Of a stretch of DNA of 64,000 bases, positions 11,885-60,732 are shown piece after piece; the stretch's first letter is position 1, and each line of letters opens with the position of its first letter. The stretch is taken from the NCBI RefSeq assembly GCF_041075285.1, contig NZ_CP163512.1:2666001-2730000 (forward strand). The letters run 5' to 3'. The DNA comes from Providencia rettgeri (GTDB lineage: Bacteria; Pseudomonadota; Gammaproteobacteria; Enterobacterales; Enterobacteriaceae). The notes below the pieces were generated by a model. That model was not told the origin of the DNA. It worked only from the letters and a program-made list of their open reading frames with translations, and did not search any database. The position numbers were made by a program, and so were the translations under genes.

Positions 11885-12049
11885 GGTAAAAAACCTCTTA
11901 AATAGTTATTAACTAGTTACCAGAATCAAGGCAGTCTTAGGAGTACGAGAAATGATGAATAAATAAATTACCTATAAGTGGCAACCTACCTACTCAGGTA
12001 TGCAGAACATCTCTGTGCAATACCGCACAAGCATGCAGATACAGTTAAT

Positions 12050-12193
12050 TCTCTCCCATCCGGACTATAACCGTCGGCTCCAGATTCACACTGGATCTGC
12101 TGACCTTTACCACCGAAATGATAAAGCGCTCGCGGGCTTCATGCGCGTTGCATGTTACCGCCGGTGGGGACTTTCACCCCGCCCTGAGATAAA
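12050..12193 (-). promoter_or_regulatory. FMN riboswitch (RFN element) of ribB
   Basis: On the minus strand the element opens CAGGGCGGGGTGAAAGTCCCC and closes AGTCCGGATGGGAGAGA, with ACCGGCGGTAA, AGCCCGCGAGC, GGTCAGCAGATCC and GGAGCCGACGGTTATAG between them; these are the conserved RFN boxes in order. FMN binding should switch off ribB. Between the aptamer and ribB no hairpin with a strong U tract is obvious, so control by masking the ribosome site is possible, but this is an inference. Confidence 0.95.
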
Positions 12194-12326
12194 CGCGATC
12201 AATATAACGCCAATAATTCAACTACGCAACGATGATATTCAAAACTGGCGAGCCACTCACACTTTTAGACAAAAAATATGAATAAAAACTTAGTGTTACC
12301 AACACTCTTTTTTCACCTTTTAATTT

Positions 12327-24598: not shown

Positions 24599-24785
24599 AG
24601 GGCTGATATTAAAACAGCCCTGAGGTTGTTGACAAAGTGGGATAAAAGCGTGGTTTTTCCCACTTTGTGTTATCAGCCGAAAATCAATATATTGATTTTC
24701 CTTGTTTATTTTCAAAACCAATCCAACCTGCCGCCAAACATGTTATGTTTGTCAGCAGTCTGAGGGCTGATATTAAAACAGCCCT
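24599..24785. mobile_element. ~141-bp hairpin-rich element flanked by a duplicated terminator hairpin (locus 1)
   Basis: The element (24622-24762) runs from GAGGTTGTTGACAAAG to GTCAGCAGTCTG. Its ends are imperfect inverted repeats (11 of 15). Inside are three consecutive palindromes: ACAAAGTGGGA with TCCCACTTTGT, GAAAATCAATATATTGATTTTC (split at its centre), and CAAACAT with ATGTTTG. The same 23-bp hairpin, AGGGCTG...CAGCCCT, stands on both sides at 24599-24621 and 24763-24785 as a direct repeat; it is the aer terminator. The second locus is at 60545-60732 with a different duplicated hairpin. Confidence 0.8.
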
Positions 24786-47795: not shown

Positions 47796-49499
47796 ATGAA
47801 GACAATCTCACGGCAAGCGTATGCTGATATGTTTGGTCCAACTCAAGGGGATCGCGTACGTTTAGCGGATACAGAACTGTTTTTGGAAATAGAAAAAGAC
47901 TTCACCACTTATGGGGAAGAAGTCAAATTTGGCGGCGGCAAAGTGATTCGCGACGGTATGGGTCAAAGCCAAGTGACCAGCGACCAATGCGTCGATGTGC
48001 TGATCACCAATGCCATTATTTTAGACCATTGGGGGATCGTCAAAGCAGATATTGGCATCAAAAATGGCCGTATCGCGGGGATTGGTAAAGCGGGTAACCC
48101 TGACGTACAACCGAATGTCGATATCGTGATTGGTCCCGGAACGGAAGTGGTCGCGGGTGAAGGAAAAATTGTCACCGCTGGAGGTGTCGATACCCACATC
48201 CACTTTATTTGCCCACAACAAGCCGAAGAAGGGTTAGTTTCTGGGATCACCACCTTTATTGGCGGTGGAACAGGTCCAGTTGCTGGTACTAACGCCACCA
48301 CGGTCACTCCCGGTATTTGGAATATGTACCGCATGTTAGAGGCCGTGGATGAACTGCCCATTAACGTGGGGCTATTTGGTAAAGGGTGTGTTAGCCAGCC
48401 CGAAGCCATTCGTGAACAAATTACCGCAGGGGCGATTGGCCTAAAAATTCACGAAGACTGGGGGGCAACCCCGATGGCGATCCACAACTGCTTGAATGTC
48501 GCCGATGAAATGGACGTGCAAGTAGCCATCCACTCCGACACGCTAAACGAAGGCGGCTTCTACGAAGAAACAGTAAAAGCCATCGCGGGACGTGTGATCC
48601 ACGTGTTCCACACAGAAGGTGCAGGTGGTGGCCATGCCCCTGACGTGATCAAATCCGTTGGGGAGCCCAATATTTTACCGGCCTCGACTAACCCAACAAT
48701 GCCATACACCATCAATACAGTGGACGAACATCTGGATATGTTGATGGTGTGCCATCACCTTGACCCATCAATTCCTGAAGATGTGGCTTTTGCTGAATCG
48801 CGCATTCGTCGTGAGACCATTGCCGCAGAAGATATTCTGCATGACATGGGCGCAATTTCCGTTATGTCCTCAGATTCCCAAGCCATGGGACGCGTGGGCG
48901 AAGTGATTATGCGCACATGGCAATGTGCCCATAAAATGAAATTGCAGCGCGGTACGATGGCTGGTGATACCCCAGACAGTGACAATAACCGCATTAAACG
49001 TTATGTCGCGAAATATACCATCAACCCAGCCTTAGCCCATGGTATTGCTCATGAAGTTGGGTCGATAGAGAAAGGTAAATTAGCGGATATTGTCCTATGG
49101 GATCCGGCCTTTTTTGGTATCAAACCAGCACTTATCATAAAAGGTGGCCTTGTGGCCTATGCGCCAATGGGGGATATCAACGCGGCAATTCCAACACCTC
49201 AGCCTGTACACTACCGCCCTATGTTTGGCGCACTAGGTAAAGCTAAATACCAGACGTCGATGATTTTTATGTCAAAAGCAGGAATCGATGCTGGCGTCCC
49301 CGAAAAGCTTGGCTTACAAAGCTTAATTGGTCGTGTTGAAGGTTGCCGTAATATTAGCAAGGCATCCATGATCCACAATAGCTATGTGCCACATATTGAG
49401 CTCGACCCTCAAACCTATATTGTGAAGGCCGATGGCGTTCCATTGGTATGTGAGCCAGCCACTGAGTTGCCAATGGCACAACGTTACTTTTTATTCTGA
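47796..49499 (+). CDS. ureC: Urease alpha subunit (catalytic)
   Basis: UreC holds the dinuclear nickel site that hydrolyses urea to ammonia and carbamate. At 567 residues it equals the Klebsiella protein and aligns without an obvious gap, which puts His134 and His136 in [11 protein letters not shown], the carbamylated Lys217 in [10 protein letters not shown], His246 in IHSDTLNE, His272 in [13 protein letters not shown], the flap histidine in [16 protein letters not shown] (His320 by alignment) and Asp360 in SSDSQAMGR. All catalytic residues appear intact, so an active urease is expected. Confidence 0.99.
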
Positions 49500-60544: not shown

Positions 60545-60732
60545 AAAATAAGGGCAAAGGCCCTTATTGAGGTTGTTGACAAAGCGGGGAAAAGCGTGGT
60601 TTTTCCCACTTTGTGTTATCAGGTGAAAATCAATATATTGATTTTCCTTGTTTATTTTCAAAACCTATCCAACCTGCCGCCAAACATGTTATGTTTGTCA
60701 GCAGTCTGAAAATAAGGGCAAAGGCCCTTATT
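60545..60732. mobile_element. ~140-bp hairpin-rich element flanked by a duplicated terminator hairpin (locus 2)
   Basis: The element (60569-60708) is nearly the same as that at 24622-24762, starting GAGGTTGTTGACAAAGCGG and ending GTCAGCAGTCTG, with the same three palindromes. Here a different hairpin, AATAAGGGC...GCCCTTATT, is repeated on both sides at 60547-60568 and 60711-60732 as a direct repeat of about 24 bp including flanking A residues. It lies between vgrG and hypE; the right copy is placed to end hypE transcription on the minus strand. Confidence 0.8.

What the first reader, a model, noticed from the sequence alone, without database searches (positions are those of the whole stretch)
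24599..24785. Small hairpin-rich element inserted at a terminator, with the whole 23-bp hairpin duplicated
At this locus a 141-bp element (24622-24762) with imperfect inverted ends GAGGTTGTTGACAAA and CAGACTGCTGACAAA sits between two identical copies of the aer terminator hairpin (AGGGCTG...CAGCCCT). At 60545-60732 an almost identical element sits between two copies of a different hairpin (AAGGGC...GCCCTT). Two independent sites, each with its own duplicated hairpin, argue for insertion beside intrinsic terminators with a 23-24 bp target duplication. Such length is unusual; from memory, long duplications of this order are known for the IS1202 group, so a related transposase could act in trans. 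Targeting terminators spares genes. Each element also adds three palindromes, which could fold as RNA.
Basis: partly seen in the sequence, partly recalled or inferred. Interest (0 to 1): 0.82.

Follow-up and report, generated by a model that had tools for sequence, protein, structure and literature searches.

The report
Mobile element that duplicates terminator hairpins
A 140-bp mobile DNA element without genes of its own has spread through Providencia genomes by inserting at the foot of hairpins at gene ends and leaving a copy of the whole hairpin on both sides, so that the amount of DNA it duplicates seems to be set by the hairpin and not by the enzyme.

Summary
The window's genome holds at least 66 two-ended copies of the ~140-bp element; 55 of 66 lie between two copies of the site's own hairpin, 29 exact, against 0 of 800 mispaired flanks. 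At six sites element-free relatives have the hairpin once. The duplication is not a fixed 23-24 bp: it runs 18-32 bp, is centred on the site's best hairpin in 54 of 55, and correlates with hairpin length (r=0.61; permutation p<=5e-5). The IS1202 link fails. Tips, subterminal hairpins and target match full-length IS1182-family insertion sequences, which also duplicate a whole hairpin (12 of 16 with both ends). So it is best read as an IS1182-type MITE moved in trans. The IS1182 member studied in most detail, IS1272, deletes its target hairpin; whole-hairpin duplication by attack at the hairpin's 5' feet was drawn only as a hypothetical branch (PMC5678879). These data look like that branch. The chemistry is inferred, and no intact transposase was found in this genome with PF13751.

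The parts
24599..24621 (.). left copy of the duplicated 23-bp hairpin (site 1)
   Evidence: the hairpin occurs once in the element-free relative G012
24622..24762 (+). 141-bp element, site 1 (left tip GAGGTTGTTGACAAA, right tip reverse complement CAGACTGCTGACAAA)
24633..24667 (+). left subterminal hairpin of the element
   Evidence: 5 pairs with changes on both sides in 22 distinct sequences
24679..24700 (.). central palindrome, nearly invariant
   Evidence: 8 of 9 pairs never vary; role unknown
24735..24751 (+). right subterminal hairpin of the element
   Evidence: 89.5% of cells paired, one pair with changes on both sides
24763..24785 (.). right copy of the duplicated 23-bp hairpin (site 1)
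60545..60568 (.). left copy of the duplicated 24-bp hairpin (site 2)
60569..60708 (+). 140-bp element, site 2
60709..60732 (.). right copy of the duplicated 24-bp hairpin (site 2)

Best explanation
The element is a MITE moved in trans by an IS1182-family transposase. Shown by sequence: it sits at the foot of a hairpin, mostly at gene 3' ends; the whole hairpin is present once in empty sites and twice around the element; the duplicated length varies and correlates with hairpin length; full-length IS1182-family elements with matching tips do the same. [quoted passage not shown] gap repair then copies the hairpin on both sides, so the stagger is read off the target. Inferred consequence: each outer T- or A-rich tract keeps a hairpin beside it, so termination is probably kept for both neighbours, and the upstream gene's 3' UTR grows by one hairpin and one element.
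For: 55 of 66 two-ended copies have the hairpin repeat, 0 of 800 mispaired controls. Empty sites with one hairpin at six sites; at L002 the left and right matches of the empty site overlap by 20 bp in 3 of 3 genomes, the length of the repeat there. Best hairpin centred on the repeat in 54 of 55; r=0.61 with hairpin length, r=0.55 for the 29 exact repeats. Repeat starts with A in 50 and ends with T in 53 of 54. Of 66 copies 35 lie between convergent and 0 between divergent open frames. 22 of 24 recognised copies in other Providencia genomes agree. IS1182-family elements: 12 of 16 with both ends have the same hairpin on both sides; transposases identified. Element tips: 14 of 15 and 15 of 15 bases occur at the same position in the IS ends I listed.
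Against: 11 of 66 copies have no clear repeat, and 4 of 16 IS copies have two different hairpins, explained only by assumed decay or recombination. The correlation is moderate: repeat minus hairpin length has sd 3.5, no smaller than the sd of the repeat lengths (3.2), because my automatic hairpin measure is noisy (sd 4.4). No intact transposase found in this genome (PF13751, 1 decayed match), so action in trans is inferred. The orientation bias (33 against 11) needs a cue beyond a symmetric hairpin. Another IS1182-family member is listed with a 4-bp duplication (ISPse1, PMC3281130, table passage), so this is not a trait of the whole family. No biochemistry.
Confidence: 0.72

Rival explanations
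1. An ordinary transposase with a long, roughly fixed stagger (as in the long-duplication IS1202 group) that prefers dyad-symmetric sequence; the hairpin fills the stagger because terminators are about that long.
For: Repeat lengths cluster (mean 22.5, sd 3.2). Duplications of 16-28 bp exist in the IS1202 group (PMC10132070, section 18 read).
Against: Lengths reach 32 bp and correlate with hairpin length; none of 20000 permutations fits as well. Matching IS elements carry IS1182, not IS1202, transposases, and the tips are not TGT/ACA.
Confidence: 0.12
2. Same products, but the hairpin is met on single-stranded DNA (lagging strand) or at a transcribing terminator, with repair or replication making the second copy, rather than on a double-stranded cruciform.
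For: Orientation bias relative to the T-rich tract, 33 against 11 with 10 ties, and 18 against 7 relative to co-directional genes; two cases in which one hairpin copy has its loop inverted (L015; L121, by eye).
Against: The bias is partial: at the aer-tsaD hairpin G006 holds the element in the opposite orientation. Loop inversion could also arise later.
Confidence: 0.25
3. The hairpins belong to the element or arose independently on each side.
For: 11 of 66 copies have no clear repeat, some with two unlike hairpins.
Against: Hairpins differ between sites but agree within a site; element-free relatives have the same hairpin once.
Confidence: 0.02
4. The element is kept mainly as a functional RNA in 3' UTRs (stability or regulation), mobility being incidental.
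For: Stable predicted fold of the window locus, RNA z -6.7, DNA z -7.5, flanking hairpins included; covarying left stem; position at gene ends.
Against: No Rfam match at either site; IS ends have a varying hairpin in the same position; many copies are decayed.
Confidence: 0.07

Closest known systems
IS1272 and TnSha1 (IS1182 family, Staphylococcus; PMC5678879, PMC4923244)
   Same: Same transposase family; targets chosen as stem-loops, often terminators, without a shared sequence.
   Different: There the stem-loop is deleted or replaced and no target duplication is made; here the whole stem-loop is duplicated. PMC5678879 draws whole-stem-loop duplication (pathway b) as a possibility without data for it.
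IS1182-family elements on Providencia, Salmonella, Klebsiella and Vibrio plasmids and in Serratia and Paludifilum (L117-L124, L228, L237)
   Same: Matching tips, subterminal hairpins, hairpin target and, in 12 of 16 copies with both ends, whole-hairpin duplication.
   Different: About 1.6 kb with a transposase gene; the window's element is 140 bp without one.
IS1202 family, long-duplication group (PMC10132070)
   Same: Unusually long target duplications (16-28 bp).
   Different: Different transposase and tips; that paper found no common target for the long-duplication group.
Bacterial MITEs and REP-type repeats in general (recalled; PMC10969869 and PMC3733652 seen in passages)
   Same: Short, non-coding, palindromic, many copies between genes.
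   Different: In the passages seen, none is tied to IS1182 or to duplication of a whole terminator hairpin.

Membership tests
MITE | short non-coding element with terminal inverted repeats in many copies | tested here: met
   66 two-ended copies, 59 of 66 of 139-142 bp; tips identical at 10 of 15 positions
MITE | target duplication and empty sites | tested here: met
   55 of 66; six sites with empty relatives
MITE | ends shared with an autonomous element | tested here: met
   14 of 15 and 15 of 15 tip bases seen at the same position in IS1182-type ends; mobilisation itself not shown
IS1182 family (for the full-length partners) | IS1182 transposase | tested here: met
   5 of 5 scanned above the NF033551 cut-off, with PF13751 and PF05598
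IS1182 family, IS1272 mode | target stem-loop replaced, no target duplication | tested here: not met
   hairpin duplicated, not lost
IS1202 family | outer ends 5'-TGT and ACA-3' | tested here: not met
   tips are GAG and CAG; the defining feature is taken from the abstract of PMC10132070
IS1202 family | IS1202-type transposase acting in trans | tested here: inconclusive
   four PF00665 (rve) matches in this genome, not classified further
group IIC intron (recalled to insert at terminators) | group II ribozyme RNA | tested here: not met
   no Rfam gathering match at either site

The most novel reading that the evidence does not exclude
In this branch of the IS1182 family the size of the target duplication is not a property of the transposase: the enzyme recognises an extruded hairpin and strand-transfers at its two 5' feet, acting on the target somewhat like a junction-cutting enzyme, so that the duplication equals the hairpin over at least 18-32 bp. 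The hairpin deletion of IS1272 and this hairpin duplication may then be two outcomes (3' foot and 5' foot) of one structure-reading mechanism.
Probability: 0.6. Interest if true: 0.8.

Novelty: new variant of a known kind. Interest (0 to 1): 0.66.

Why it matters
Target duplication length is normally near-constant and helps to define a transposase family. Here it varies with the target's secondary structure, giving dozens of natural footprints per genome of a transposase that seems to read DNA shape. It supplies natural examples for a branch that was drawn only as a hypothesis in 2017 and makes it testable with designed hairpins. It also suggests how an element can reach high copy number with little harm: by duplicating the hairpin where it lands it would leave a terminator on each side.

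Tried and rejected
IS1202 link: rejected on tips and on the transposase family of the matching IS elements. The PF13751 lead gave one decayed match in this genome, near a stretch where an IS1182-type left end and the start of its transposase run into the right end of the element (L102:1985-2202). Its two flanking hairpins differ, so it was not counted as an insertion. More distant PF13751 matches in G010, G027 and G035 were not used in any count. Compensated changes between the two hairpin copies: 2 compensated pairs among 39 differences, while 26 lose a pair in one copy, so no case is made for selection on the duplicated stems. In the pair count for the element one of five measures (further pair types, 14 against 14.1 shuffled) shows nothing. 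The E. coli collection and the phage collection gave no match. Literature: (of 10 searches) turned up no description of this element or of whole-hairpin duplication by an IS1182 member in titles, abstract starts and the passages read. The library is open-access only and ISfinder/TnPedia were not available, so this is no proof that it is unpublished. PMC4438569 was opened (passages) and had nothing on targets.

Selections and misses. The 66 copies are those with both ends within 2 mismatches and 60-200 bp apart; 27 right and 34 left end matches stayed unpaired, and nine of these stretches (L159-L167) were fetched but not analysed. The listing was cut (101 places counted). One search scored 40 of 133 candidates. 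In one search, 4 of 28 copies had unrecognised ends; two of the 22 positives (L079, L080) look like the same site in two genomes. In one search, of 23 other genomes 3 were not resolved and one intergenic region (429 nt) was not printed in full. In one search one G005 site (L004) has a different hairpin. In one search, 4 of 20 IS loci lacked one or both ends. Hairpin site 2 of the window has no empty-site test: its left neighbour was not found beside hypE in the relatives (by eye). Neighbouring genes are longest open frames, not annotated genes.

Full report
What is there. At 24599-24785 and 60545-60732 two near-identical elements (141 and 140 bp) each lie between two identical copies of a local hairpin. 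The hairpins differ between the sites. Site 2 lies between the start of a vgrG-like gene and the end of a gene with AIR-synthase-type domains, which I read as hypE. The genome is of the same genus as G021, whose contig lengths are those of Providencia burhodogranariea DSM 19968; I take it as Providencia.

How general it is. A search of the window's own genome scored 40 of 133 candidates and listed 40 near-full-length matches at 94-100% identity. Listing both ends with up to 2 mismatches gave 66 two-ended copies. One rule for direct repeats against both ends of 66, 29 without a difference. The same rule of 800 pairs of flanks from different copies. A separate test finds a stem of score 6 or more against both ends in 43 of 66, against 12 of 1320 random points for one side. 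In other Providencia genomes 22 of 24 copies with recognised ends have the repeat. Related elements in Klebsiella aerogenes, K. pneumoniae and P. alcalifaciens records have similar hairpins on both sides (by eye); the Proteus match was not followed to its right end.

Empty sites. At the aer-tsaD site G012 has the hairpin once and no element. 17 further genomes have element-free intergenic regions of 66-168 nt (by eye). G006 has an element at the same hairpin in the opposite orientation, with its own duplication. At five more sites of this genome relatives carry the hairpin once: three genomes at L002, two at L021, two at L004, one at L003 (G012 holds the element there too) and two at an older, one-ended copy near 2359252. 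At L002 the left and right matches overlap by 20 bp in 3 of 3 genomes, equal to the repeat there.

The duplication and the hairpin. In 54 of 55 cases the best hairpin of the rejoined site, sought without reference to the repeat, is centred on it. Repeat lengths run 18-32 bp (mean 22.5, sd 3.2) and correlate with the hairpin measured to its outermost G:C pair (Pearson 0.61, Spearman 0.67; 0.55 for the 29 exact repeats). None of 20000 permutations fits as well. The left edge lies 1-3 nt outside the outermost G:C pair in 44 of 54 and the right edge in 42 of 54. The first base is A in 50 and the last T in 53 of 54. 50 of 55 repeats have 6 or more consecutive stem pairs against 19 of 3174 flank windows. 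Against: the difference between repeat and hairpin length still has sd 3.5, so the fit is loose with my automatic hairpin measure. This supports a stagger set by the structure but does not prove it.

Where it lands. Of 66 copies the neighbouring open frames are convergent in 35, both along the element in 18, both against it in 7, divergent in none; in 6 one side was not called. A T-rich tract (4 or more of 6) lies right of the repeat in 39 of 54, an A-rich tract left in 19, both in 12, neither in 8. The richer tract is on the element's right in 33 and on its left in 11, 10 ties (p=0.0013). So the targets are mostly terminator-like, with a partial orientation bias that a symmetric hairpin alone does not explain. 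PMC9208149 (passages) reports that IS1182 copies are over-represented between convergent genes, which fits.

The partner. One stretch of this genome runs from a tip CAGACTGCTGACAAAG and the start of an IS1182-type transposase into the right end of the element. Searching with that start led to IS1182-annotated genes in Providencia, Salmonella, Klebsiella and Vibrio plasmid records and to relatives in P. burhodogranariea, Serratia, Izhakiella, Edaphovirga, Klebsiella and the Gram-positive Paludifilum, among 12 loci. 5 of 5 transposases scanned are IS1182 by NF033551 with DDE-type Pfam domains. Of 20 loci, 16 have both ends. By eye all 16 have a hairpin against both ends; in 12 it is the same hairpin (L118, L119, L120, L121, L123, L124, L228, L230, L231, L233, L237, L238; L238 with differences, L121 with its loop inverted) and in 4 different ones (L117, L122, L229, L235). 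IS ends and element ends share the layout target hairpin, short tip of about 11-13 nt, subterminal hairpin (by eye). In the element's left stem 5 pairs change on both sides; for the whole structure 23 cells do, against 6.1 in shuffles and at most 5 in slid controls.

Mechanism. [quoted passage not shown] gap repair would copy both and give this product. PMC5678879 (Discussion, first part, and passages read) draws this as pathway b, beside its own data in which IS1272 replaces the stem-loop. PMC4923244 (passages read) likewise reports partial deletion of the hairpin and no duplication. The present data are what pathway b predicts. Which DNA form is attacked is open.

Limits. No intact transposase of this kind was found in this genome with PF13751 (1 decayed match), so the mover is inferred from relatives. 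11 of 66 copies show no clear repeat. ISPse1, another IS1182-family member, is listed with a 4-bp duplication (PMC3281130, passages), so the family is mixed. Terminator function is predicted; the simple scan does not call the first hairpin. Novelty is judged against a partial literature.

Noticed in passing
L102:1985-2202 (own genome C1:1427484-1427701): An IS1182-type left end and transposase start run directly into the right end of the 140-bp element, with different hairpins on the two sides; perhaps a recombination product between an IS and a MITE. A decayed C-terminal transposase piece lies about 1.2 kb further on.
   Followed up: partly
L015 (own genome) and L121 (Salmonella plasmid IS), flanking hairpins: The two hairpin copies agree except that the loop is inverted in one (for L015; L121 by eye), which may be a trace of the insertion mechanism or of later hairpin inversion.
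   Followed up: no
G006 aer-tsaD site (L169) and G011 hypE site (L211): Other species hold the same kind of element at the same two gene-end regions as the window; in G006 in the opposite orientation at the same hairpin, suggesting repeated independent use of favoured hairpins.
   Followed up: partly
L240:4912-4957 and L241:2493-2531: A second short repeat (about 35-50 bp matches) recurs at several places in G006 and G012 in the hit lists.
   Followed up: no
L089, L090, L093 (records of the plasmid collection): Klebsiella records labelled as plasmids carry housekeeping genes such as gyrB or kdsA around the related element, so these copies are probably chromosomal.
   Followed up: no
window 47946-48231 (-) and 12044-12195 (-): Rfam matches: 5' ureB sRNA (118.7 bits) and an FMN riboswitch (109.7 bits).
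   Followed up: no
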